The notes under the pieces: model-generated
What the model was told of the DNA's origin: nothing
The model's database searches: none
What the model saw: only the letters and a program-made list of their open reading frames with translations
Program-made: the position numbers and the translations under genes
DNA from: Nitratireductor pacificus pht-3B
GTDB taxonomy: Bacteria; Pseudomonadota; Alphaproteobacteria; Rhizobiales; Rhizobiaceae
Length of the DNA: 64,000 nucleotides
Reading direction: 5' to 3'
Assembly (NCBI RefSeq): GCF_000300335.1
Contig: NZ_AMRM01000015.1
Coordinates: 62,001-126,000 of the forward strand
Part shown: positions 28,479-42,489 of the stretch, in pieces
Layout of the letters: the number at the start of each line of letters is the position of its first letter
Numbering within the stretch: position 1 is the stretch's first letter

Positions 28479-29588
28479 GTGAGTGAGATTCGCCCATTGG
28501 CACGGGAGGACGTGCCGGTCATCGCTTCGATGTTCCAGCGCATCCTGCGCCGGGACCGGCGCGCTGCGTCCCCTGACCTGATCGCCTATCTCTCGAAGCT
28601 CTTCCTCGACCCGCCCAACCGCGATCCCGATATCGCTTCGCTGGTCCACCTGCGGGCCGACGGAAGCGTTTCCGGCTTCATGGGCGTGCTGCCCATGCGG
28701 ATGGCCTTCGAGGGACGACCGTTGCGCGCCGCCATCGGCGGCAGCTTCATGGTCGAGGACCACGAGGACGATCCCTATGCCGGCGCCCGCCTCCTGCGCG
28801 CCTTTCAGAACGGTCCGCAGGATCTCTCGCTGACCGAAACGGCCAATGACGTCTCGACCACCATGTGGCGCAAGCTGCGCGGCACGATCCTGCCCGACTA
28901 CAGCCTGGAGTGGCTGCGCGTCATCAGGCCCACCGCCTTCGTCTCCGAGATGGCGGCAGGCGTCTTCGGCCCTCTTCGGCTGATCTCGCCGCTCGCCCGT
29001 CCGATCGACGCGCTGCTGGGACGCATCGCACCCGGAGCCGGCTGGGCGCATCTTCCCGCAGCGGCGCTGGGCGGCAAGGCCCTGCCGAGCAGCGACGCCG
29101 ACGCGGAAACGGCCGCCGCCCTGTTTCGCCGCTTCGTCGAACTCCACGCACTGCACCCCGACTGGCCCGAGGCGGATCTGCAGCGCATGGTCGCCGAATC
29201 CGGCCGGAAGGCGAATTACGGCGGCATGGTCCGTCGCCAGGTGCTGGCGCGCAACGGCACGCCGGTCGGCCTGTTCCTCTACTACGGCGACCGCGCCCGG
29301 ATCGGCCGGGTCATCCAGGTTCTTGCCCTGCCCGGCCAGGAAGGCGCGGTGATCGACAGCATGCTGGCCGATGCCTGCGAGCGCGGGCTGGTCGCCCTGC
29401 GCGGCCGCAGCCAGCCGGCCTTGCTCGACGCCATGCTCGGGCGCCGCTTCGCCTTCGTCCACGCCTCTTCGAGCATCGTCCACGCCCGGGACCAGAGCCT
29501 GATCGCGCCGTTCCGCGCCGGGCAGGCCTTCTTCAACGGCTTCGCCGGCGAATCCTGGTCGCGCCTGCTCGGAGACCGTTTTGACTAG
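28479..29588 (+). CDS. Two-lobed GNAT-like acyltransferase, first gene of the acyl/amide operon
   Basis: The protein has 369 residues from GTG 28479, whose ribosome site is weak. The first half (IRPLAREDVPVIASMF, then GSVSGFMGVLPMRMAFEGRPLRAAIGG) has the strand pattern of a GNAT fold. The second half, from about residue 215 (RRQVLARNGTPVGLFLYYG), repeats a GNAT-like strand order, resembling two-domain acyltransferases. No canonical Q/RxxGxG/A acetyl-CoA loop is obvious, so the acyl donor may not be acetyl-CoA. With an ACP gene downstream, transfer from acyl-ACP to an amine is a possible role. Confidence 0.65.
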   Translation: MSEIRPLAREDVPVIASMFQRILRRDRRAASPDLIAYLSKLFLDPPNRDPDIASLVHLRADGSVSGFMGVLPMRMAFEGRPLRAAIGGSFMVEDHEDDPYAGARLLRAFQNGPQDLSLTETANDVSTTMWRKLRGTILPDYSLEWLRVIRPTAFVSEMAAGVFGPLRLISPLARPIDALLGRIAPGAGWAHLPAAALGGKALPSSDADAETAAALFRRFVELHALHPDWPEADLQRMVAESGRKANYGGMVRRQVLARNGTPVGLFLYYGDRARIGRVIQVLALPGQEGAVIDSMLADACERGLVALRGRSQPALLDAMLGRRFAFVHASSSIVHARDQSLIAPFRAGQAFFNGFAGESWSRLLGDRFD

Positions 29589-29630
29589 CCGCGCCGACAG
29601 CCTTTGCATCCAGCCCGGCGAGCGCCGCTG

Positions 29631-31571
29631 ATGTGCGGGATCGCGGGATATGTTGGCGCGGGCCTGACACCTGACGACGCGGCATCGCGGCTGAAGGCGA
29701 TGGCCGACGCCATTGCCCATCGCGGCCCCGACGATGCCGGGATCCACGTCGGAAACGGCTTTGGGCTGGCGCATCGCCGCCTCGCGGTCGTCGGCCTAGA
29801 CGACGGACAGCAGCCCATGGCGAATGCCGACGGGACGCTGCACATTACCTACAACGGCGAGATCTTCAATCACATCGAGCTGCGCCGCGATCTGGAAAGC
29901 CGCGGCTGCCGCTTCCGCACGGGCAGCGACACCGAGGTGATCCTCCACCTCTACGAGCGGATGGGAGCCGGATGCGTCACCATGCTGAACGGCGACTTCG
30001 CCTTTGCCATCTGGGACGAACCCCGCCGCCGTCTGGTGCTGGCGCGCGACCGCATGGGCGTGCGGCCGCTCTATCACACATGGCACGGCGGACGCTTCCA
30101 CTTCGCCTCCGAGGTGAAGGCGCTGCTGACCGTTCCCGGCATCGAGGCGCGCATGGATCCGATCGCGCTCGACCAGATCTTCACCCTGTGGGCGCCGATC
30201 CCGCCGCGCACGGTCTTCGACGGGATAGCGGAACTGCCTCCGGCGCATGTGATGACCGTCGAGGACGGCGCGGCGCGGCAACACGCCTACTGGGCGCTCG
30301 ATTTTTCCGATGACGCCGCGGGACGCAGCGAAGCCGAGCATGCGGAAGAAGCGCGCGCGCTTCTCGAGGATGCAACGCGCATCCGCCTGCGCGCCGATGT
30401 CGAGGTCGGCTCCTACCTTTCGGGCGGCCTCGATTCGTCCATCGTCTCGGCCATGGCCGCGCGCATGGCGCCGGCCGGCCTCAGAACCTTCGCCATCGGC
30501 TTTTCCGACGACGCGTTCGACGAGGGCGCGTTCCAGCAGATCATGACAGAAGCGCTCGGCACGCGGCATCACCGGATCACCAGCGGCCCCGGCGACATCG
30601 CCACGGTCTTCGCGGATGTGGTGCGGCACGCGGAACAACCCGTCCTGCGCACGGGGCCGGCGCCGCTCTACCGCCTCTCGCGGCTCGTCAGGGACGTGGG
30701 CATCAAGGCCGTGCTTTCCGGCGAAGGCGCCGACGAGATTTTTGCCGGCTACGACATCTTCAAGGAAGCGCGCATCCGCCGCTTCTGCGCCCGCCAGCCG
30801 GGGTCCCGCCTCCGGCCGCATCTGTTCCGGCGCATCTATCCCTATCTGTCGACGCTGCAGCGCCAGACCCCCGAGTATCTCGGCGCATTCTTCGGCGTCG
30901 GCGCCGACCGGTCGGACGACCCGCTGTTCTCGCACCGCCCGCGCTTTCGTGCGACGGCAGGGGCCAAGCTGTTCTACTCGGCCGCGCTGCGCGAGCGGCT
31001 GGACGGCTACGACGCGGCGGACGAGATGGCCGCGCTCCTGCCGGACGCGTTCGGGAGCTGGCATCCCTTGCACCAGGCCCAGTATCTGGAAACCCGGTTC
31101 CTGCTGCCCGGCTACATCCTGTCGAGCCAGGGCGACCGGATGGCGATGGCACACGGCATCGAGACGCGCTTTCCCTTCCTCGACCACCGCCTTGTCGAAC
31201 GCGCCGCCCGCATTCCCGCCGACATGAAGCTGCGGGGCCTGCGCGAAAAACATCTGCTGCGCCGCGCAACCGCCGACCTTCTGCCCGCTCGCATCGGCTC
31301 GCGGCCGAAACAGCCCTACCGCGCGCCCGAAAGCAGCGCCTTCCTGGGCGAGGCGGCGGACGGGTTGCTGGCGGCGCTCACCCCGGCGGCGATCACGGAG
31401 ACGGGGTTGTTCAACCCGCAGACCACCGGCCGGCTGATGGAAAAGAACCGCAAGGGCGCGTTGACCGGCTTCCGCGACAACGCCGCCTTCGTCGGCATCC
31501 TTTCAACGCAGCTCTGGCACCGCCAGTTCGCGGCCGCCGCGCAGCATGACACCGCCTTGCGTGCAGGCTAG
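29631..31571 (+). CDS. Glutamine-dependent asparagine-synthase-type amidotransferase
   Basis: ATG 29631 exposes the catalytic cysteine as residue 2 (MCGIAGY) after methionine removal, giving 646 residues. The class II glutaminase domain (HRGPDDAG, YNGEIFNH, FNGDFAF-like LNGDFAFAIWD) is followed by an ATP-pyrophosphatase domain with SGGLDSS at 264-270 and GEGADEIFAGY. It activates a carboxylate as an acyl-AMP and transfers glutamine-derived ammonia. Its place between a GNAT-like gene and an ACP gene resembles the amidotransferases of polysaccharide and exosortase-linked loci more than a housekeeping asparagine synthetase. Confidence 0.9.
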   Translation: MCGIAGYVGAGLTPDDAASRLKAMADAIAHRGPDDAGIHVGNGFGLAHRRLAVVGLDDGQQPMANADGTLHITYNGEIFNHIELRRDLESRGCRFRTGSDTEVILHLYERMGAGCVTMLNGDFAFAIWDEPRRRLVLARDRMGVRPLYHTWHGGRFHFASEVKALLTVPGIEARMDPIALDQIFTLWAPIPPRTVFDGIAELPPAHVMTVEDGAARQHAYWALDFSDDAAGRSEAEHAEEARALLEDATRIRLRADVEVGSYLSGGLDSSIVSAMAARMAPAGLRTFAIGFSDDAFDEGAFQQIMTEALGTRHHRITSGPGDIATVFADVVRHAEQPVLRTGPAPLYRLSRLVRDVGIKAVLSGEGADEIFAGYDIFKEARIRRFCARQPGSRLRPHLFRRIYPYLSTLQRQTPEYLGAFFGVGADRSDDPLFSHRPRFRATAGAKLFYSAALRERLDGYDAADEMAALLPDAFGSWHPLHQAQYLETRFLLPGYILSSQGDRMAMAHGIETRFPFLDHRLVERAARIPADMKLRGLREKHLLRRATADLLPARIGSRPKQPYRAPESSAFLGEAADGLLAALTPAAITETGLFNPQTTGRLMEKNRKGALTGFRDNAAFVGILSTQLWHRQFAAAAQHDTALRAG

Positions 31572-31596
31572 CACCAAGACCACAAGGAAACCCAGC

Positions 31597-31860
31597 ATGT
31601 CCGCTTCCGTGAAATCCGAGATCCATGCCTTCATCGTCGAGAACTTCCTGTTCGGCGATGCGAGCCAGTTGCCGGCGGAGGAAATCTCGCTGATCGAAAC
31701 GGACCTGGTGGATTCGACCGGCATTCTGGAAATGGTGCTGTTCCTAGAAGAGCGCTTCGCCATCTCGGTCGCCGATGCCGAGATCGTGCCGGACAATTTC
31801 GACACCGTCGCGAGACTCGTCGCGTTCGTCGAGCGCAAGCGCGCCGCGGCGGAAGCCTGA
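31597..31860 (+). CDS. Acyl carrier protein (dedicated, non-housekeeping)
   Basis: ATG 31597 gives 87 acidic residues. The phosphopantetheine site is Ser40 in LVDSTGILEMV, where the usual DSL is DST. The helices and the following LFLEERFAISVADAEIVPDNFDTVARLVAFVE match stand-alone carrier proteins. It is a discrete ACP next to an acyl-AMP ligase, an arrangement used to load an organic acid onto the carrier. It is 26 bases after the amidotransferase and 9 before the ligase. Confidence 0.9.
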   Translation: MSASVKSEIHAFIVENFLFGDASQLPAEEISLIETDLVDSTGILEMVLFLEERFAISVADAEIVPDNFDTVARLVAFVERKRAAAEA

Positions 31861-31868
31861 CCACGGCC

Positions 31869-33410
31869 ATGCGCGTCGAAACCCTCTTGCGCGAGCAGGC
31901 GGCAAGAATGCCGCAGGCCACGGCGCTCGTCGCCGGCGGGATGCGGCTCCGCTACGGCGATCTCGATGCGCTTTCCGAGCGCTTCGCCGCAAGCCTTGCA
32001 GAACAGGGCGTGGCGCGCGGCGACCGGGTCATGCTGTTCATGGATAATTGCTGGGAAATGGCTGTCGCGGTCTTCGCCGTTCTGAAGGCGGGCGCCGTGG
32101 TCTGTCCGCTCAATCCCGGCGTGAAGGCTCCCGGTCTGGCGCATGTGCTCGGCGACTGCCGGCCCGGCGCCATCGTGCTGGACGCCCGCCATCATACGCT
32201 GCTGCAGGAGGCGGACCCCGGCGGAACCCTTGCCGGAACCCGCATCATCGCCAGGGCGGGCGAGAGCCTGCCCGAAGGAGCAGTCGCCCTCGAGGAATGC
32301 CTGGAGGAATCCCACCGCCTCGACAGGGAAGCGGGCGACGAAAACGATCTCGCCCTGATCATCTACACCTCTGGTTCGACCGGCCGCGCCAAGGGCGTGA
32401 TGATGGCGCATCGCAATGTCGATGCCGCGTCGCGGCTCATCCGCGACTATCTGGAAAACACGCCGGACGACGTCGTTCTGAGCGTGCTTCCCCTTTCCTT
32501 CACCTACGGCCTCTACCAGCTCCTCGTCGCGGTGCGTGCGGGTGCATGCCTCGTCCTGGAGAAGAGCTTCGCCTTTCCACAGACCGTTCTGGAGACGGCA
32601 CGCGCGGAAGGCGTGACCGGCTTTCCGCTCGTTCCCACCATCGCCGCCATGCTCGTCTCGATGAAGGACAGCCCGGCCGGCTTCCTGCCGGACCTGCGCT
32701 ACATCACCAATGCCGCCGCCGCCCTGCCCCCGGCCCATCTGGCATCGCTGCGGGCGCTTTTCCCAAAGGCCGAGTTCTACGCGATGTACGGGCTGACCGA
32801 ATGCGCCCGCGCCACCTTCCTGCCGCCGGGCGAAATCGACCGGCATCCGGGATCGGTCGGCAAGGCGCTGCCGGAAACGGAAGCCTTCGTCATCGGCGAG
32901 GACGGCGTCCCCGCGGCCGCGGGCGTCACCGGCGAGCTGGTCGTCCGGGGGCCGCATGTGATGCGCGGATACTGGAACGACCCGGCCGCAACCGATGCCG
33001 TTCTGCGCGCCCTGCCCGACGGCAGGGGCATCGCGCTGCACACCGGAGACCTGTTTAGCACCGATGCCGAAGGCTATCTGCATTTCGTCGGGCGCAGGGA
33101 CGACATCATCAAGGTGCGCGGCGAGAAGGTTCCACCCAGGCAGGTGGAGGACGTGCTTCAATCCTGTCCCGGCGTCCGCGAGGCGCTGGTCTTCGGCGAA
33201 CCGGAGCCGGTGCTGGGCCACATCGTTCACGCGCTCATCATACGCGACGACGACGCGCTCACCGAACGAGCCGTCATGCAGTTCTGCGCCCGCCGCCTGC
33301 CCGACGCGATGATGCCGAAAAAGGTGACCTTCAGATCCGAACTGCCAAGAACGGCGAGCGGCAAGATCAGCCGCCGCCTTGCCGCCATGGAGGCAACGCA
33401 AGCTTTATGA
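31869..33410 (+). CDS. Acyl-AMP ligase (AMP-dependent synthetase family)
   Basis: The protein has 513 residues from ATG 31869. The P-loop-like motif TSGSTGRAKG is at 167-176, followed by MYGLTECAR (adenine-binding YGLTE), the hinge aspartate in LHTGDLFSTDAEGYLHFVGRRDDIIKVRGEKVPP, and the C-terminal lysine in PRTASGKISRR. All residues needed for adenylation and thioester formation are present. Next to an ACP, it probably loads a carboxylic acid onto the ACP or CoA. The stop overlaps the next ATG. Confidence 0.92.
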   Translation: MRVETLLREQAARMPQATALVAGGMRLRYGDLDALSERFAASLAEQGVARGDRVMLFMDNCWEMAVAVFAVLKAGAVVCPLNPGVKAPGLAHVLGDCRPGAIVLDARHHTLLQEADPGGTLAGTRIIARAGESLPEGAVALEECLEESHRLDREAGDENDLALIIYTSGSTGRAKGVMMAHRNVDAASRLIRDYLENTPDDVVLSVLPLSFTYGLYQLLVAVRAGACLVLEKSFAFPQTVLETARAEGVTGFPLVPTIAAMLVSMKDSPAGFLPDLRYITNAAAALPPAHLASLRALFPKAEFYAMYGLTECARATFLPPGEIDRHPGSVGKALPETEAFVIGEDGVPAAAGVTGELVVRGPHVMRGYWNDPAATDAVLRALPDGRGIALHTGDLFSTDAEGYLHFVGRRDDIIKVRGEKVPPRQVEDVLQSCPGVREALVFGEPEPVLGHIVHALIIRDDDALTERAVMQFCARRLPDAMMPKKVTFRSELPRTASGKISRRLAAMEATQAL

Positions 33411-34384
33411 CCATCAACGACCAATCATTCTCGGCCGCCACGCTGGAGATCGACCCGGCGGCCGAAACGGAGCGCATCGTCGCAGCCCTGCGCACGCAGT
33501 TGCGCGCGGCCGTGCGCAAGCGCGGCCTCGTGCTCGGCCTGTCGGGCGGGATCGATTCCAGCGTCTGCGCCGCGCTTGCCGCGCGCGCCGTCGGCCCCGA
33601 GCGCGTCTTCTGCCTGTTCATGCCGGAGCACGATTCCGATCCGGAGAGCCTGCGGCTCGGCCGTCTTGTCGCGGAAACCTTCGGCCTCGTCGGCGTCGTC
33701 GAGGACATCGGCCCGGCGCTGGCCGCCATGGGCTGCTACGCGCGGCGCGACACGTTCATCCGCCAGGTGGTTCCGGAATATGGCGAGGGCTGGAGCTCGA
33801 AGATCGTCATCGCCGGAGCGCTCGAAACCGGCGGATACAACATCTCCTCGCTGGTTGTGCGCGCGCCCGACGGCACGACCGGAAAGCATCGCCTGACGCC
33901 GGAGGTCTATCTCGGCATCGTCGCCGCCACCAACATGAAGCAGCGCACCCGCAAGCAGTTCGAATATTATCATGCCGACCGGCTCAACCACGCCGTGCTC
34001 GGCACGCCGAACCGGCTCGAGCACGACCAGGGTTTCTTCGTCAAGAACGGCGACGGCGCGGCGGATGTGAAACCGATCGCCCATCTCTACAAGTCGCAGG
34101 TCTACCAGTTGGCCGAGTATCTCTGCGTGCCGGAGGAAATCCGCCGCCGTCCGCCGACCACCGACACCTATTCACTCGCCCAGACCCAGGAGGAGTTCTA
34201 CTTCGCCCTTCCCTACCGCGAGATGGATCTGTGCCTCTACGGTCTCGACCATCGCGTCGAAGCGGCAGGCGTGGCCGGGGCAACCGGCTTGAGCGAAGAG
34301 CAGGTGCAACTGGTCTGGCGCGACATCGCGGCCAAGCGCAAGGTCGCCCACTACCTGCACCTGCCGCCGCAGGTGGTCGCCTGA
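33407..34384 (+). CDS. NAD-synthase-like ATP pyrophosphatase (amide-forming), divergent member
   Basis: The protein has 325 residues from ATG 33407, overlapping the ligase stop. The N-type ATP-pyrophosphatase loop SGGIDSS is at 46-52, and GDGAADVKPIAHLYKSQVYQLAEYL matches the NadE core. It has no glutaminase domain, so it needs free ammonia or a partner. Compared with typical NadE, the region GTPNRLEHDQGFFVKNGDG and TTDTYSLAQTQEEFYFALPY is unusual. In this operon it may amidate a pathway intermediate rather than serve general NAD synthesis; true NadE activity is still possible. Confidence 0.8.
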   Translation: MTINDQSFSAATLEIDPAAETERIVAALRTQLRAAVRKRGLVLGLSGGIDSSVCAALAARAVGPERVFCLFMPEHDSDPESLRLGRLVAETFGLVGVVEDIGPALAAMGCYARRDTFIRQVVPEYGEGWSSKIVIAGALETGGYNISSLVVRAPDGTTGKHRLTPEVYLGIVAATNMKQRTRKQFEYYHADRLNHAVLGTPNRLEHDQGFFVKNGDGAADVKPIAHLYKSQVYQLAEYLCVPEEIRRRPPTTDTYSLAQTQEEFYFALPYREMDLCLYGLDHRVEAAGVAGATGLSEEQVQLVWRDIAAKRKVAHYLHLPPQVVA

Positions 34385-34421: not shown

Positions 34422-35450
34422 TCAGTGAACGGTCTGGACGCGGAAGTCGTTCGGGTCGCGGCGCTCGGCGGACCTGTTCGCCTCGTCCGACCCGGCCAGA
34501 CCGGCCGCCACCACCGACACGCGGAACGTGCCCTCGAGACTGTTGTCGAAGATCGCACCAACGATGATCTCGGCATCGTCGCCGACCTCCTCGCGGATGC
34601 GCGTGGCGGCTTCGTCCACTTCGAACAGCGTCATGTCGCGACCGCCCGAGATCGACACGAGCACGCCCCTTGCGCCGGCCATGTTGGCTTCGTCGAGCAG
34701 CGGGTTGGCGATGGCCGCCTCAGCCGCCTTCATCGCGCGCGCGTCGCCCGAGGCCTCGCCTGTCCCCATCATCGCGCGGCCCATATCGCGCATGACGGAG
34801 CGCACATCGGCGAAGTCGAGATTGATCAGGCCTTCCTTGACGATCAGGTCCGTGATGCAGCCGACGCCCGAGTAGAGCACCTTGTCGGCAAGGCCGAAGG
34901 CCTCGGCGAACGTCGTCTTCGCGTCGGCGATGCGGAACAGGTTCTGGTTGGGGATCACGATCACCGTGTCGGCGCTCTCGCGCAGCAATTCGATGCCGCG
35001 CTCGGCGATGGCCATGCGGCGGTTGCCCTCGAAGGTGAACGGCTTGGTGACGACGGCCACCGTCAGGATGCCGGCATTGCGGGCCGCGGCGGCGATCACG
35101 GGGGCCGCGCCGGTCCCCGTTCCGCCGCCCATGCCCGCCGTCACGAAGCACATATGCGTGCCCGACAGGTGATCCATGATCTCGGCAATGGTTTCCTCGG
35201 CCGCCGCCTGACCGATCTCGGGAAGCGAACCCGCGCCCAGCCCTTCGGTCGAATTGGCACCGAGCTGGATCAGCCGTTCGGCCTTCGACATGGTCAGCGC
35301 CTGAGCGTCCGTGTTGGCGACGATGAAATCGACGCCGTCCAGCTTCTGCGCGATCATGTTGTTGACGGCGTTGCCGCCGCCGCCGCCGACACCGATGATG
35401 GTGATTTTCGGCCGCATCTCCGAGATCTCGGGCTTCTTGTTGTCCGTCAT
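34422..35450 (-). CDS. ftsZ2: Short second FtsZ (tubulin-like GTPase) lacking the C-terminal tail
   Basis: The protein has 342 residues. The GTP-binding G-box ([15 protein letters not shown], core at 108-114) and the T7 synergy loop ([15 protein letters not shown]) are intact, so it should bind GTP and polymerise. It ends soon after the core at about residue 320, with no long linker and no conserved C-terminal peptide for FtsA/ZipA-type partners. No dcw-cluster genes (ftsA, ftsQ, murC) surround it. This matches the short FtsZ2 known as a second copy in rhizobia, probably accessory to a full FtsZ elsewhere. Confidence 0.9.
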
Positions 35451-35637: not shown

Positions 35638-36252
35638 TCAGCCCCGCAGGACCGTCATGCGCATCGATTCGCGTTCCGAGAACGTGGCGAACCAGCCGGC
35701 GAGCGTTTCCCGCCCGGCCCGCCAGTCCTTTTCGGGAAAGCGGAGATCGAGGTAGCTGAGCGCGCAGGCCGCAGCGATGGCGCCGGCGTTGACCGGCCCC
35801 GCGAGCAAGGCCATCCACTGCTCCGCCAGCGCATCGAGGCCGCTGTCGATCTTCTCCATCTGCCCGGCATGCCACGCATCCCAGTACAGCTCCCGCGGAC
35901 GCACCGCCGTTTCGTAGCGCGCCAGGACCGCCGCATCGAGGATCGCATCCGCCAGGGCTTCGAGCGTCATGACCGCGAAACGCTCCCCGCCCTCCGCCGG
36001 CATCAGGCGCGGCGTGTCCGTCAGTGCGTCGAGATAGGAGCAGATCACGCGGCTGTCGTAGAGCACCCGGCCATCGTCGAGCAGGAGTGTCGGCACCTTG
36101 CCGGAAGGATTGCTGGCGACGATGGTCTTGTCGCGGTTGATCGGATTTGCCGCGCAACCGAGCCGCTCGATCCGCTCGGCCACCCCTTTTTCGTGGGCGC
36201 TGACGAGCACCTTGCGGACATAGGGAGAAGTAGGCGAGTAGAACAGTTTCAT
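35638..36252 (-). CDS. Glutathione S-transferase family protein
   Basis: The start ATG at 36252, behind GGAG, gives 204 residues beginning MKLFYSPTSPYVRKV. A longer frame starts 12 codons earlier without a better ribosome site. The N-terminal thioredoxin-like domain has the SPTSPYVRK active-site start and GKVPTLLLDDGRVLYDSRVICSYL (the cis-proline and glutathione-binding DS). A helical C-terminal domain follows. It is probably a soluble detoxification enzyme, with no clear functional link to its neighbours. Confidence 0.9.
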   Translation of the reverse strand: MKLFYSPTSPYVRKVLVSAHEKGVAERIERLGCAANPINRDKTIVASNPSGKVPTLLLDDGRVLYDSRVICSYLDALTDTPRLMPAEGGERFAVMTLEALADAILDAAVLARYETAVRPRELYWDAWHAGQMEKIDSGLDALAEQWMALLAGPVNAGAIAAACALSYLDLRFPEKDWRAGRETLAGWFATFSERESMRMTVLRG

Positions 36253-36363
36253 GAATGGCTCCATCGGCCGGAAACACGCGCCGTCCATGGGATCGGGACG
36301 ACCGCACCGCGACCGTCCTACACGAGCCGAGGGTTCCAGGCCAGCGCCCGCGCCGGCGGCGGA

Positions 36364-38953: not shown

Positions 38954-40219
38954 CTATTCCCCGAGCGTTCCGATCATCCGCAGGACATCGTCTTCGGCGC
39001 GCCGCCCACCGAACTCTTCGACGATGCCGAACGCGCCGCCATAACCCCAGATGGACCAGGCGAAACCGCGCGTTTCCGCCTGCCCGATCATGTCGCGCAT
39101 ATAGGCGGCCCGCCATTCGCCGGGCATGACGACCGGGTTCTCGTATTCCTGCCGTATCATCCCGAACTCGCTCAGGATGATGTCACCGGGATCGACCGCA
39201 TGCGTGTCGGCCCAGTCGGCGACGACCCGGAACGGCGCGGCCATCTGCTCCTCGAGTTCGGCCTCCGTATCGATCAGGGCGATCTGTTCGTCCAGATAGG
39301 CGAGCATGCCCGCGCGGCGCAGCAGAGGCGCCTCGCTGCGGATACGCTCGCGCGCCTTCTCCAGTGCATCTGTCAGCTCCGCCTTGTGGGCATGGGGAGG
39401 ATAGGGAATGCCGGTCACGTAGCGGATGAAATCACCCGCCCAGAGCGCGCCCTGCGACGTGAGCAGGAAGGGCTGGTAGGTATGGAAACCCCACAGGATG
39501 TTGTCGTCGGGAATGGTCTTCGGATCGAGCGCGGCAAGCCCCTCCGCCGATCCCCAGCATGCACCGGACAGGACCAGCGTGATGCGGGACGCGGAAGCAC
39601 GCGCCGCGGCGAAGAGGCGGCCGAGCTGGTCGTCCCAGGCCGCACCCTCGGCGCCTTCGCAGCCGGTGACGGGTTCGTTCATGAGTTCGAAGGCGACCTG
39701 TGCCGGATCTTCCCCGGAAAGCGTCCGTCCCATCTCCCGCACCAGGTCCAGATAGCGTTCGAACAGCGCCTCGTCGCGCAGGATCTCCTCGACGCCGGCG
39801 AAGCGATCCGCCCCGCGCGGAATCGGGTGCAGGTCGACGATCACCTTGAGCCCCGCCGCATTGATGGCCCGCACCCCCTCCAGCACCGAGCCGAACAGGC
39901 GATCGCGGAAGGAGCGGGCGTTGGGGGAAAGGAAAGGGATCGGGTCCACCGGCATGCGCACGAAATCGAACCCGGTCCCCTTCAGGAGCGCCAGGTCTTC
40001 GGTCTCGATCTTGCGCCGCCATTCGGGATAAGGGAGCAGAACGCCCTCGCGCGACCAGTCGGCCTCGTTCGGCCAGGTGTCCCAGAGGTCGAGATTGACG
40101 CCGCGGCCCGGCGCGAAGGTTGCCGCCTCGGAGGGGCTGGCCGGGCAACCGAGAAGCGCAGCGATCGCAAGCAGACCCGCGACCGGACTGCCGCTCAATC
40201 GTTTGGTCTTGCTTGCCAT
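38954..40219 (-). CDS. Exported glycoside hydrolase family 5 (cellulase-like) protein
   Basis: The protein has 421 residues with a signal peptide of about 32 residues. LLGC at 22-25 could be a lipobox, although SEA-A at 30-33 fits signal peptidase I. A TIM-barrel GH5 domain has the acid/base glutamate E182 in FELMNEP and the probable nucleophile in IILSEFGM, with VDLHPIPRG and WGFHTYQPF also conserved. It probably cleaves a beta-glucan or exopolysaccharide in the periplasm or outside. The nearby O-antigen ligase-like gene suggests a polysaccharide context. Confidence 0.88.
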   Translation of the reverse strand: MASKTKRLSGSPVAGLLAIAALLGCPASPSEAATFAPGRGVNLDLWDTWPNEADWSREGVLLPYPEWRRKIETEDLALLKGTGFDFVRMPVDPIPFLSPNARSFRDRLFGSVLEGVRAINAAGLKVIVDLHPIPRGADRFAGVEEILRDEALFERYLDLVREMGRTLSGEDPAQVAFELMNEPVTGCEGAEGAAWDDQLGRLFAAARASASRITLVLSGACWGSAEGLAALDPKTIPDDNILWGFHTYQPFLLTSQGALWAGDFIRYVTGIPYPPHAHKAELTDALEKARERIRSEAPLLRRAGMLAYLDEQIALIDTEAELEEQMAAPFRVVADWADTHAVDPGDIILSEFGMIRQEYENPVVMPGEWRAAYMRDMIGQAETRGFAWSIWGYGGAFGIVEEFGGRRAEDDVLRMIGTLGE

Positions 40220-40349
40220 GCCGAGGCCCCCTGTCCTATCTCCTGCATCGCCAGGATACAGGCGGCCGATTAACGAATTTTAGCGGTTTTGAAGATACGG
40301 TGCACGCGCCGGTTGCGGGCGGCATATGGTGTTATTCAGGGGGCAGACG

Positions 40350-41108
40350 ATGACTGTTGTTGACCGATGGCGGCCGGAAACGGCAGCCGGGGGATTTACG
40401 CGCGACGATGAGGACATCGCCTTCTACACGCGCATCAACGCCCTCGTGCACCCCGACATGGTGCTGGCCGATCTGGGCGCAGGACGCGGCTCGCGCTTCG
40501 ACGACGGAAGCTCGCCGTTCCGCAGGAATTTCTGCAATTTCCAGGGCAGGGTGAAGCGGGTCATCGGCCTGGATGTCGATCCGGTCGTGATGCAGCATCC
40601 CCATCTCGACGAGGCGCATGTCATCGAGCCCGGCGGCGCCCTGCCGCTGGCGGATGCCAGCGTCGACATCGTCGTCTGCGAATGGGTCATCGAGCATGTC
40701 GAACACCCGAAGGTCTTCGCGCGGGAGATCGAGCGCGTCCTCAAGCCCGGCGGCTGGTTCTGCGCATTGACGCCCAACACCTACGGCTATGTCGGGATCG
40801 GCAACAACATGGTGCCCGACATCGTCAAGGACGGCCTGATGCGGCTGGTGTGGCCAGAGCGCCCGGCGCAGGACGCCTTCCCGACATTCTACCGGATGAA
40901 CACTGCCGGCAGCATCCGGCGCGCCTTCGGCAAGGAACGCTGGTCGCACCATGGATATATCTCGAACGGCACGCCGAAATATCACGGCGGCACGACGCTC
41001 GGCTTTGCCGTGGTCTCGTTCCTGCAATGGCTGATGCCTCCGGCCCTGCGCACCAATCTGATGGTGTTTTCGCAGAAGCGCGCGGCGGCGATGGAGATCG
41101 ATCCCTAG
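40350..41108 (+). CDS. Class I SAM-dependent methyltransferase
   Basis: ATG 40350 behind GGGGGCAGACG gives 252 residues; an in-frame ATG at 40326 lacks a ribosome site. The SAM-binding motif VLADLGAGRGSRF and motif LPLADASVDIVVCEWVIEHVEHPKVFAREIERVLKPGG are standard. Such enzymes next to polysaccharide genes often methylate sugars, but the acceptor cannot be read here. It is divergent from the GH5 gene and convergent with the ligase-like gene. Confidence 0.87.
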   Translation: MTVVDRWRPETAAGGFTRDDEDIAFYTRINALVHPDMVLADLGAGRGSRFDDGSSPFRRNFCNFQGRVKRVIGLDVDPVVMQHPHLDEAHVIEPGGALPLADASVDIVVCEWVIEHVEHPKVFAREIERVLKPGGWFCALTPNTYGYVGIGNNMVPDIVKDGLMRLVWPERPAQDAFPTFYRMNTAGSIRRAFGKERWSHHGYISNGTPKYHGGTTLGFAVVSFLQWLMPPALRTNLMVFSQKRAAAMEIDP

Positions 41109-41139
41109 ACCTGAGGCAGGCGGGGCCTGGAGCGCAGCA

Positions 41140-42489
41140 TCAACGCCGCGTATGCGCCGGCACGATGAAGCGCGCCGTCAGGCGAAGGCCGAGCGCCGCC
41201 ATGACGAAGAACATCCACACCGGATCGGCCCTGCGGAAAAAGAAGCTTTCCAGGAACGCGTTGAACAGGGCGAACGTCACGATCATCATGAAGAAGTCGG
41301 CGAGGAACACGTTCTCGCGATGCAGTGGCGCGCGCATGTAGTCGCGCAGCGGCACGATGATGAACGCGATGATGCCGACGGCCAGCCCGGGCAAACCCAT
41401 GGCGATCGCCAGGTCCATGTAGCTGTTGTGGCTGTGCACCGTGCCGCGCACGTCCCAGGCCCGGTCGAACGGGTGATCTGAGGTGAACACCGTCTCCGTC
41501 AGCCAGAAATTCTCGAAGCCGTAGCCTGTCCACGGCCGCTGGGCGAGCATCGAGCCGGCAAAATCCCACAGCGCGGTGCGCCCCGTATAGGTGAGGTCCG
41601 GCGCCAGCGACGCCGCCAGCTGCTTCACGGGTTCGATGAAGACGATGCCGAGCGTCGCGACGCCCATGCCGCAGACCGCGGCAGCGACGAAGAGCGGAAC
41701 GAGAAAGCGCAGTCCGAAGATCCCAGGCAGCGCGATCAGCAGGCCGGCGAGCGGCACGGTCCCCGCCGTGGTCTTGGACCCGGTGTTGAGAACGAAGATC
41801 ATGGCGAGCACGAACAGCAGGCCGCCGGCCCGCCGCCAGCCGCGCCGCCAGAGATAGATCCCGGCAAAGGAAAGGCTCGCCATCACGGGACCGGCGATGT
41901 TTTTGTGCGTGAACACCCCGCGCCACAGCCCCGAATGCTGGTACTCGACGTCCCCCGCCTGGTGGATCGCCGCTTCCGGCACGATCACCAGTCCCAGATA
42001 GGAGAGGCCGATGATCGTGAAGCCGGCCAGGACCAGCACCCGGCAGAACGCGTCCGCCGAGCGCGGCAGGGTCAGAACGGCCGCCACCGACACGATGCCG
42101 ATCACGCTGAAGGCCGCGCTGCGCATCGTCGCGGTCGGGTCGGGCGTGTTGAGGATCGACAGGAACAGAAAGGCGAGAAGCAGCAGCCACCACGGGCTGA
42201 GAAGGGCCGACAGCACGCGCCGGTCGACCAGCGTCAACAGCGAGACCAGCGACAGCGCCCCAAGCCCGCCGAAGCCGAGCTGGTTGACGATGTCGCCGCC
42301 GCTGCCGGTCAGCTCCGCGCCGCTCGGCTGGAAGGGCCGGAAGGAGATGATCAGCGTGCTGAGGATCACCGTGGCGATCACCGTCGGAAGATGCTCGGCG
42401 GCAAGGAGCCGTTTGACGAACGGATAGTCCGCCCCGCGCTGAGTTGCCACGCCGCTCATCCGCATCGGGCCGGCTTTCCGAAATGCCAC
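41140..42489 (-). CDS. O-antigen ligase/polymerase family membrane protein
   Basis: The protein has 449 residues with about 11-12 membrane segments. A large periplasmic loop carries YTGRTALWDFAGSMLAQRPWTGYGFENFW and the Wzy_C signature histidine in GTVHSHNSYMDLAIAMGLPGL. Members join or polymerise undecaprenyl-linked oligosaccharides (WaaL, ExoQ, Wzy). No glycosyltransferases are adjacent, so the polymer is not identified. Confidence 0.9.
   Translation of the reverse strand: MAFRKAGPMRMSGVATQRGADYPFVKRLLAAEHLPTVIATVILSTLIISFRPFQPSGAELTGSGGDIVNQLGFGGLGALSLVSLLTLVDRRVLSALLSPWWLLLLAFLFLSILNTPDPTATMRSAAFSVIGIVSVAAVLTLPRSADAFCRVLVLAGFTIIGLSYLGLVIVPEAAIHQAGDVEYQHSGLWRGVFTHKNIAGPVMASLSFAGIYLWRRGWRRAGGLLFVLAMIFVLNTGSKTTAGTVPLAGLLIALPGIFGLRFLVPLFVAAAVCGMGVATLGIVFIEPVKQLAASLAPDLTYTGRTALWDFAGSMLAQRPWTGYGFENFWLTETVFTSDHPFDRAWDVRGTVHSHNSYMDLAIAMGLPGLAVGIIAFIIVPLRDYMRAPLHRENVFLADFFMMIVTFALFNAFLESFFFRRADPVWMFFVMAALGLRLTARFIVPAHTRR

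What the first reader, a model, noticed from the sequence alone, without database searches (positions are those of the whole stretch)
28479..34384. Five-gene acyl/amide tailoring operon: GNAT-like, asparagine-synthase-type, ACP, acyl-AMP ligase, NadE-like
Genes are packed with 8-42 base gaps or overlaps and read as one transcript. The set contains everything to load an acid onto a carrier (ligase, ACP), move it to an amine (two-lobed GNAT), and form amides by two different ATP-pyrophosphatases. Amidotransferase, ACP and acyl-CoA ligase are also associated with exosortase/PEP-CTERM polysaccharide loci, but no exosortase or PEP-CTERM protein is in this window. I know of no assigned product for this exact combination. 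A substituent of a surface polysaccharide or a small acylated amide are the two readings I favour.
Basis: partly seen in the sequence, partly recalled or inferred. Interest (0 to 1): 0.78.

Follow-up and report, generated by a model that had tools for sequence, protein, structure and literature searches.

The report
Mobile five-gene acyl-amide decoration cassette
Five neighbouring bacterial genes form a conserved kit that probably loads an organic acid onto a carrier protein, turns acid groups into amides and attaches the product to another molecule, most likely a surface sugar chain; the kit is known only in fragments, and the version here seems to use a different acid from its relatives.

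Summary
In detail: five ORFs lie where stated with operon-like spacing, and they form a conserved cassette. Of the 80 best of 191 relatives found, 78 keep AsnB-ACP-ligase-NadE in order, and 71 have the GNAT in the locus. It is not housekeeping: the genome has a separate glutamine-dependent NAD synthase. The GNAT is predicted as a tandem GNAT fold (N-myristoyltransferase/Eis-like). The NadE-like protein keeps the NadE fold plus about 53 extra residues. Ligase and ACP are very probably orthologues of S. meliloti SMb20650/SMb20651, for which ligase-dependent ACP acylation is reported.

Outside the window's clade, 29 of 58 loci carry two or more Wzx/Wzz/Wzy/deacetylase/GT homologues within about 10 kb, and 30 carry a PrmC/HemK-type methyltransferase. 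One distant relative follows XrtA-type exopolysaccharide genes. The window's clade (GNAT first, one operon) differs: 0 of 22 loci have any of those homologues or that methyltransferase. Its ligase lost conserved motif residues (Asp212, Thr282, Lys313, Cys315), while the other four proteins changed little.

Best reading: a portable acyl/amide-decoration module for a surface glycan, with a switched acid substrate in this clade. The product is unknown, and for this clade the glycan link is only inferred.

The parts
28479..29588 (+). Tandem GNAT-fold N-acyltransferase (369 aa), proposed acyl transferase
   Evidence: ORF; no Pfam/NCBIfam match; model pLDDT 91, VIA Z 19.9 (2hv2), 19.5 (Eis 3ryo), 19.4 (NMT1 6ehj); present in 71 of 80 related loci
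29631..31571 (+). AsnB-type glutamine-dependent amidotransferase (646 aa from the MCGIAG start)
   Evidence: TIGR01536 511 bits vs cut-off 267; TIGR03108 441 vs 817; of 78 loci with a hit, Cys nucleophile seen in 74 and not covered by the alignment in 4; SGGLDSS S and D seen in 77, not covered in 1
31597..31860 (+). Acyl carrier protein (87 aa; ORF opens at 31546)
   Evidence: Sub-threshold ACP models; carrier Ser conserved 79 of 79; the S. meliloti pSymB homologue lies beside the ligase
31869..33410 (+). AMP-forming acyl ligase (513 aa) with altered substrate-motif residues T212, A282, A313, A315
   Evidence: PF00501 and TIGR03098 431 vs 592; Lys499 79 of 79; clade-specific changes
33407..34384 (+). 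NadE-like ATP pyrophosphatase (325 aa), PRK00876 family, no glutaminase domain
   Evidence: NF002048 510 vs 313; NadE fold Z 26.5 to 2e18; insertion relative to NadE; C110, Y111, R113 in 80 of 80

Best explanation
The five genes are a self-contained, portable cassette that makes and installs an amide-bearing acyl group. The ligase activates a carboxylic acid with ATP and loads it on the ACP phosphopantetheine. The AsnB-like enzyme (own glutaminase) and the NadE-like enzyme (ammonia or an amine) each adenylate a carboxylate and turn it into an amide. The tandem GNAT moves the finished acyl group from the ACP to an amine. The acceptor is most likely an amino sugar of a surface polysaccharide. 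In the window's clade the GNAT is the first gene of the operon and the ligase has probably switched to a different acid. Shown here: gene order, conservation, intact catalytic motifs, predicted folds, polysaccharide/XrtA-type neighbourhood in other lineages, clade-specific ligase changes. Reported by others: ligase-dependent ACP acylation in S. meliloti homologues. Inferred: acyl identity, the targets of the two amide formers, the acceptor, order of steps.
For: Core order in 78 of 80 loci, GNAT in 71 of 80. Catalytic residues intact. PMC7232532 (passages) says SMb20650 is cotranscribed with ACP SMb20651 and that its expression gives acylated SMb20651 in E. coli; on pSymB of strain 1021 the only ligase hit lies beside the main ACP hit, inside the cassette. 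GNAT and NadE folds. Polysaccharide genes near it in other lineages: Wzx, Wzz, Wzy, deacetylase, GT. The core directly follows five XrtA-type genes in L139, of which two pass their cut-offs (deacetylase 391 vs 276; chain-length determinant 279.8 vs 278.9). A methyltransferase of the PrmC/HemK amide N-methylating family accompanies 30 of 80 loci. Ligase-specific divergence: 14 of 300 conserved columns lost, versus 9 of 704 in the other four proteins.
Against: In the window's clade none of the five polysaccharide-gene homologues, the methyltransferase or the second GNAT was found (0 of 22 loci, three of them on loci under 18 kb). The window genus has no match to that Wzx, and only 31-33% matches to that methyltransferase, probably PrmC itself. 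The Wzy 7 kb away in the window is not linked to the cassette in relatives (in G003 it is about 100 kb from it). In type II loci a ligase-thioesterase or thioesterase stands in the GNAT's place, so a GNAT is not essential to the scheme. The ligase is generally more diverse in this clade, so some changes may be drift.
Confidence: 0.45

Rival explanations
1. The window-type operon makes a free or secreted small acylated amide, not a polysaccharide substituent. The GNAT acylates an amino acid, amine or similar acceptor.
For: The window clade is self-contained and sits in changing neighbourhoods, judged from the sequence starts of the flanking genes. 0 of 22 loci with any of the five polysaccharide-gene homologues or the MTase. 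Type II relatives use an AMP-binding+thioesterase protein, like small-molecule assembly lines.
Against: No dedicated exporter or regulator was seen to travel with it. The sister lineages with the same other four proteins often sit by polysaccharide genes. No product is known.
Confidence: 0.3
2. It makes an N-acylated lipid, as in the specialised ACP/acyl-ACP synthetase/N-acyltransferase sets for sphingolipids or ornithine lipids.
For: ACP's best model is the OlsHI ornithine-lipid ACP (52 bits, cut-off 130). GNAT model resembles N-myristoyltransferase. Rhodobacterial sphingolipid loci pair a special ACP with an acyl-ACP synthetase (PMC9386255, start of abstract and passages).
Against: ACP score is far below cut-off. 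SMb20650 could not complement growth on oleate (PMC7232532). No lipid gene was recognised as travelling with it. Two amide formers have no role there.
Confidence: 0.1
3. Housekeeping asparagine and NAD synthesis genes that merely lie together.
For: Public names are asnB and nadE; NadE fold and TIGR00552 score pass.
Against: Conserved as a block. Separate full NAD synthase in the genome, 837 vs 479 bits. Sporadic: 15 of 398 genomes of the phylum sample and 20 of 297 of the order sample. Broken NadE-like reading frames in two congeners.
Confidence: 0.03
4. The NadE-like protein is a true ammonia-dependent NAD synthase kept as a local back-up, and only the other four genes form the pathway.
For: NadE fold and ATP/nucleotide motifs conserved. 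L096 lost AsnB, ligase and GNAT but kept ACP and NadE.
Against: About 53 extra residues with residues invariant in 80 of 80, and Val212 (at least 97% of 94 sequences) where all five displayed NAD synthases have Thr. In 78 of the 80 loci found with it the other three core genes stand beside it.
Confidence: 0.07

Closest known systems
XrtA/PEP-CTERM (exosortase A) EPS amidotransferase TIGR03108 and ligase TIGR03098
   Same: Same enzyme types; TIGR03098 is the best-matching NCBIfam model of the ligase; one relative (L139) directly follows XrtA-type EPS genes
   Different: Both score well below cut-off (441 vs 817; 431 vs 592). The cassette adds a NadE-like enzyme and a tandem GNAT.
S. meliloti pSymB SMb20650 (ligase) / SMb20651 (ACP)
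   Same: Homologous ligase and ACP in the same four-gene core; ligase-dependent acylation of the ACP reported (PMC7232532)
   Different: S. meliloti has the Asp212/Lys313 ligase type, the GNAT 10 kb away and convergent, plus MTase and polysaccharide genes; product unassigned in what I saw. Tag-to-gene match inferred by uniqueness, not read from an annotation.
PRK00876 / NF002048 NAD(+) synthase-like subfamily
   Same: Member by score (510 vs 313)
   Different: Name implies NAD synthesis; genome context argues for a recruited role
Tandem GNAT acyltransferases (N-myristoyltransferase, Eis)
   Same: Predicted fold over nearly the whole chain
   Different: 7-12% sequence identity in the structural alignments; acceptor and donor unknown
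PrmC/HemK N5-glutamine methyltransferases (accessory gene of sister loci)
   Same: HemK family 150 vs 116 bits; PrmC model 176 vs 199
   Different: Not found beside the cassette in the window clade; in the window genus only 31-33% matches, none in the window genome at E 1e-20

Membership tests
XrtA/PEP-CTERM EPS amidotransferase (TIGR03108) | score above curated cut-off 816.9 | tested here: not met
   441.1 bits
Exosortase-A-associated ligase (TIGR03098) | score above curated cut-off 592.35 | tested here: not met
   431.4 bits; S. meliloti homologue 451.3
Exosortase A EPS system | cassette next to XrtA-system EPS genes | tested here: inconclusive
   In L139 the core follows five XrtA-type genes, two above cut-off, three below; no exosortase was sought there or in the window
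PRK00876 (NF002048) NadE-like subfamily | score above cut-off 313 | tested here: met
   510.3 bits; L139 copy 465.7
NAD(+) synthase by function | makes NAD; sole or main NAD synthase of the cell | not testable with these tools
   Separate glutamine-dependent NAD synthase in the genome makes it dispensable for that role
Asparagine synthase B type amidotransferase | glutaminase Cys at position 2 and SGGLDSS pyrophosphatase loop; TIGR01536 | tested here: met
   511 vs 267 bits; Cys in 74 of 78 loci, the other 4 not covered by the alignment; loop Asp in 77 of 78, 1 not covered
GNAT superfamily | GNAT fold | tested here: met
   Predicted model, tandem GNAT, Z 19-20 to Eis and NMT; no Pfam match
Ornithine-lipid ACP (NF052616) | score above cut-off 130 | tested here: not met
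   52.4 bits
Known anti-phage defence proteins (PADLOC) | match at E 0.001 | tested here: not met
   0 families for all five
Caulobacter holdfast N-acyltransferase HfsK | sequence relationship to HfsK | not tested
   Considered because deacetylase, flippase and acyltransferase co-occur; only a search listing was seen, no HfsK sequence was compared

The most novel reading that the evidence does not exclude
The cassette writes a new class of envelope decoration. The sister lineages load an amino-acid-like acid (ligase Asp212 in the place recalled for the NRPS amino-group Asp), amidate it and, in many, N-methylate the amide with the PrmC-like enzyme. The window clade swapped only the acid-choosing enzyme and lacks the methyltransferase and a fixed glycan locus, giving a transferable acyl-amide tag with a changeable acyl group.
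Probability: 0.15. Interest if true: 0.72.

Novelty: new variant of a known kind. Interest (0 to 1): 0.55.

Why it matters
Many rhizobia and relatives carry this block under names such as asnB, ACP, acyl-CoA ligase and nadE, so it looks like housekeeping in annotation. Recognising it as one cassette links a ligase/ACP pair of unknown purpose in a model symbiont to a candidate surface-glycan modification. It also turns the natural contrast between two ligase types into a direct test of what acid is used.

Tried and rejected
Housekeeping AsnB/NadE: rejected, because the block is conserved and a separate NAD synthase exists. Defence system: no PADLOC match. Window Wzy, GH5 and methyltransferase cluster (38954-42459) as the partner glycan locus: not supported. 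The Wzy family is in 25 of 60 relatives against 12 of 60 for the cassette, is missing in two cassette carriers (G023, G050), and lies about 100 kb away in G003. A c7-type Wzx elsewhere in the window genome: no match at E 1e-20 (2 of 60 relatives have one, neither a cassette carrier). A cassette-type MTase in the window genome: no match at E 1e-20; the 16 of 30 genomes with matches have 31-37% ones, probably PrmC itself. Ornithine cyclodeaminase/arginase/aminotransferase neighbours: seen only in the window's own group among the loci examined, so not taken as part of the system. Literature: no assigned product for the whole set in searches; the library lacks most subscription papers, including Ramos-Vega 2009. 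SMb21506, named in a title on succinoglycan polymer (seen only in reference lists), may be the Wzz of the pSymB cluster; that is recalled and untested.

Limits: the 80 loci are the best 80 of 191, and 12 of the 80 are under 20 kb. The polysaccharide count looks only for homologues of five genes of one Ensifer locus (L042), at least 35% identical, not for any glycan gene. Loci share ancestry, so the Fisher values are not independent probabilities. L033 (short contig, Thr212) and L096 (no ligase) are in neither ligase group. Pairwise diversity of the ligase is higher in the window clade (0.44 vs 0.22), so part of the 14 changes may be drift. Gene calls in scripts are my own hexamer caller. NRPS-code numbering is recalled, not computed.
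Full report
OBSERVATION. The five ORFs are at the stated coordinates on the + strand. Taking the Met-Cys-Gly start for the amidotransferase (29631) and the MSASVKSEI start for the ACP (31597), the gaps are 42, 25 and 8 bases, then a 4-base overlap. Pfam and NCBIfam place four of them: AsnB (TIGR01536 511 vs 267), AMP-ligase (PF00501), NadE-like (NF002048/PRK00876 510 vs 313) and a carrier protein by sub-threshold models. The GNAT-like protein matches no family.

HOUSEKEEPING EXCLUDED. The window lies in a 4.47 Mb genome of the same genus as Nitratireductor soli (G003 and L027 share the contig length). That genome has a separate full glutamine-dependent NAD synthase (NF010588 837 vs 479). The NadE-like gene is sporadic: 12 of 60 relatives, 20 of 297 genomes in the order sample and 15 of 398 in the phylum sample, own genome included. 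In two congeners the reading frame is interrupted (G004 in two frames, G005 by a stop; draft errors not excluded). In another (L096/G009) only ACP and NadE remain.

CONSERVATION. A NadE profile found 191 relatives in public genomes; the best 80 were kept. In 78 of 80 the order AsnB-ACP-ligase-NadE is intact (L094 is a cut contig, L096 lacks two genes). The GNAT (at least 34% identical) is in 71 of 80: directly upstream on the same strand in 22 (the window type), directly downstream and convergent in 37, further off in 12, not seen in the locus in 9. Catalytic residues: carrier Ser 79 of 79, ligase Lys499 79 of 79, NadE loop Asp 80 of 80, amidotransferase Cys 74 of 78 with 4 not covered. Distances of the five proteins correlate (Spearman 0.66-0.91).

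NEIGHBOURS IN SISTER LINEAGES. Of the 58 loci not of the window type, 34 have at least one and 29 two or more of five homologous polysaccharide genes (Wzx, Wzz, Wzy, deacetylase, GT of L042) within about 10 kb (families). They include Ensifer/Sinorhizobium, Bosea, Chelativorans and Rhizobium. Thirty of 80 have a PrmC/HemK-type methyltransferase and 29 of 80 a second tandem GNAT. In S. meliloti the polysaccharide genes lie about 12 kb downstream on pSymB. In relative L139 the core directly follows five XrtA-type genes: chain-length determinant 279.8 vs 278.9 and deacetylase 391 vs 276 pass; tyrosine kinase 155 vs 231, outer-membrane protein 64 vs 91 and ATPase 73 vs 325 do not. Several other phylum-level loci show polysaccharide-type neighbours by sequence start (not family-scanned). 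Type II loci (L143, L145, L148, L149) run NadE-AsnB-ligase-ACP with the methyltransferase (L144 the same in reverse). L145 and L148 have an upstream AMP-binding+thioesterase protein and L149 a stand-alone thioesterase where the GNAT would be.

THE WINDOW'S CLADE DIFFERS. The GNAT-first operon is a clade: 23 sequences including the window, plus L030 and L037, in which no GNAT was found; support 0.994. In its 22 loci none has even one of the five polysaccharide-gene homologues, the methyltransferase or the second GNAT (three of these loci are under 18 kb). For two or more genes the contrast is 0 of 22 against 29 of 58 (Fisher 1e-5; related loci, so only indicative). Flanking genes change from genus to genus. 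So for this clade the polysaccharide link rests on homology, not on neighbours.

LIGASE SWITCH. At position 212 (motif SFxYGLYQ) the other type has Asp in 49 of 54 (4 Asn, 1 gap); the window clade has Thr 14, Gly 10, Asn 1 of 25. Thr282, Lys313 and Cys315 are lost too. Counting columns at least 90% conserved in the other type and at most 10% kept in the window clade: ligase 14 of 300; GNAT 2 of 80; AsnB 1 of 369; ACP 2 of 42; NadE 4 of 213. From memory of the NRPS code, 212 corresponds to the Asp that holds the amino group of amino-acid substrates and 315 to another pocket position; this mapping is recalled. Inference: the acid changed, the rest of the chemistry did not. Caution: the ligase is also more diverse within this clade (mean distance 0.44 vs 0.22).

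FOLDS. The GNAT model (pLDDT 91) spans two GNAT lobes, closest to Eis-type acetyltransferases and N-myristoyltransferase (Z 19-20, 7-12% identity). The NadE-like model (pLDDT 84) is NadE-fold (Z 26.5 to 2e18, 31% identity). It has about 53 extra residues between the two halves of the NadE match (profile 100-170 vs 2e18 88-105), predicted as short helices and strands, with C110, Y111 and R113 in 80 of 80. Val212 replaces a Thr shared by all five displayed NAD synthases.

KNOWN WORK. PMC7232532 (abstract and passages) states that SMb20650 is cotranscribed with ACP SMb20651, that its expression leads to acylated SMb20651 in E. coli (citing earlier work; Ramos-Vega 2009 is not held), and that it does not support oleate use. 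On pSymB of strain 1021 the only ligase hit (1451607-1453130) lies next to the main ACP hit (1453188-1453457; a second, weak one is at 677634) within the cassette; the tag identity is by this uniqueness. PMC5686131 (passages) says the ACP's function needs further investigation. PMC10315480 (one passage) lists smb20650 among genes down-regulated under Myxococcus attack. PMC4784049 and PMC3684757 (passages) show AsnB-type genes inside floc and biofilm polysaccharide clusters. No product for the whole set was found in searches.

MECHANISM PROPOSED. Acid + ATP to acyl-AMP to acyl-ACP (ligase, ACP; supported for the S. meliloti homologues). Carboxylate to amide by AsnB-type and NadE-type enzymes (motifs intact; targets inferred). 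Transfer to an amine by the tandem GNAT (fold predicted; donor and acceptor inferred). Acceptor a surface glycan (shown only as neighbourhood in sister lineages). Confidence 0.45; a free acylated amide 0.3; lipid 0.1.

Noticed in passing
window 34422-35450 (-): A 342-aa FtsZ (TIGR00065 391 vs 295 bits) directly downstream, convergent; in S. meliloti (annotated) and, by sequence family, some other Sinorhizobium loci minCDE lie downstream of the cassette. Probably coincidence of neighbours.
   Followed up: partly
window 38954-42459: GH5 cellulase-family gene, SAM methyltransferase and Wzy/O-antigen-ligase-like gene; the Wzy is in all ten genomes of the genus searched but not linked to the cassette.
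   Followed up: partly
L143, L145, L148, L149: Type II variant: NadE-AsnB-ligase-ACP plus PrmC-like methyltransferase; L145 and L148 have an AMP-binding+thioesterase protein and L149 a stand-alone thioesterase in place of the GNAT.
   Followed up: partly
L042:12116-12853 and 30 of 80 loci: PrmC/HemK-family methyltransferase (NPPY motif seen in the L042 copy) near the cassette; suggests N-methylation of an amide nitrogen.
   Followed up: partly
G004:C2:1178028-1178982, G005:C177:14036-14991, L096: Possibly decaying cassettes in congeners: NadE-like frame split or interrupted, or AsnB, ligase and GNAT missing.
   Followed up: no
L085 (record titled Bacillus subtilis SK6B4): Contig is 94-95% identical over 17 kb to Pseudochrobactrum asaccharolyticum L089, so the record is likely mislabelled or contaminated.
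   Followed up: yes
window 35638-36264 (-); L027, L065, L080, L084: A glutathione-S-transferase-like family (my label from the sequence start, not family-scanned) recurs within about 1.3 kb of NadE in five genomes of the window clade.
   Followed up: no
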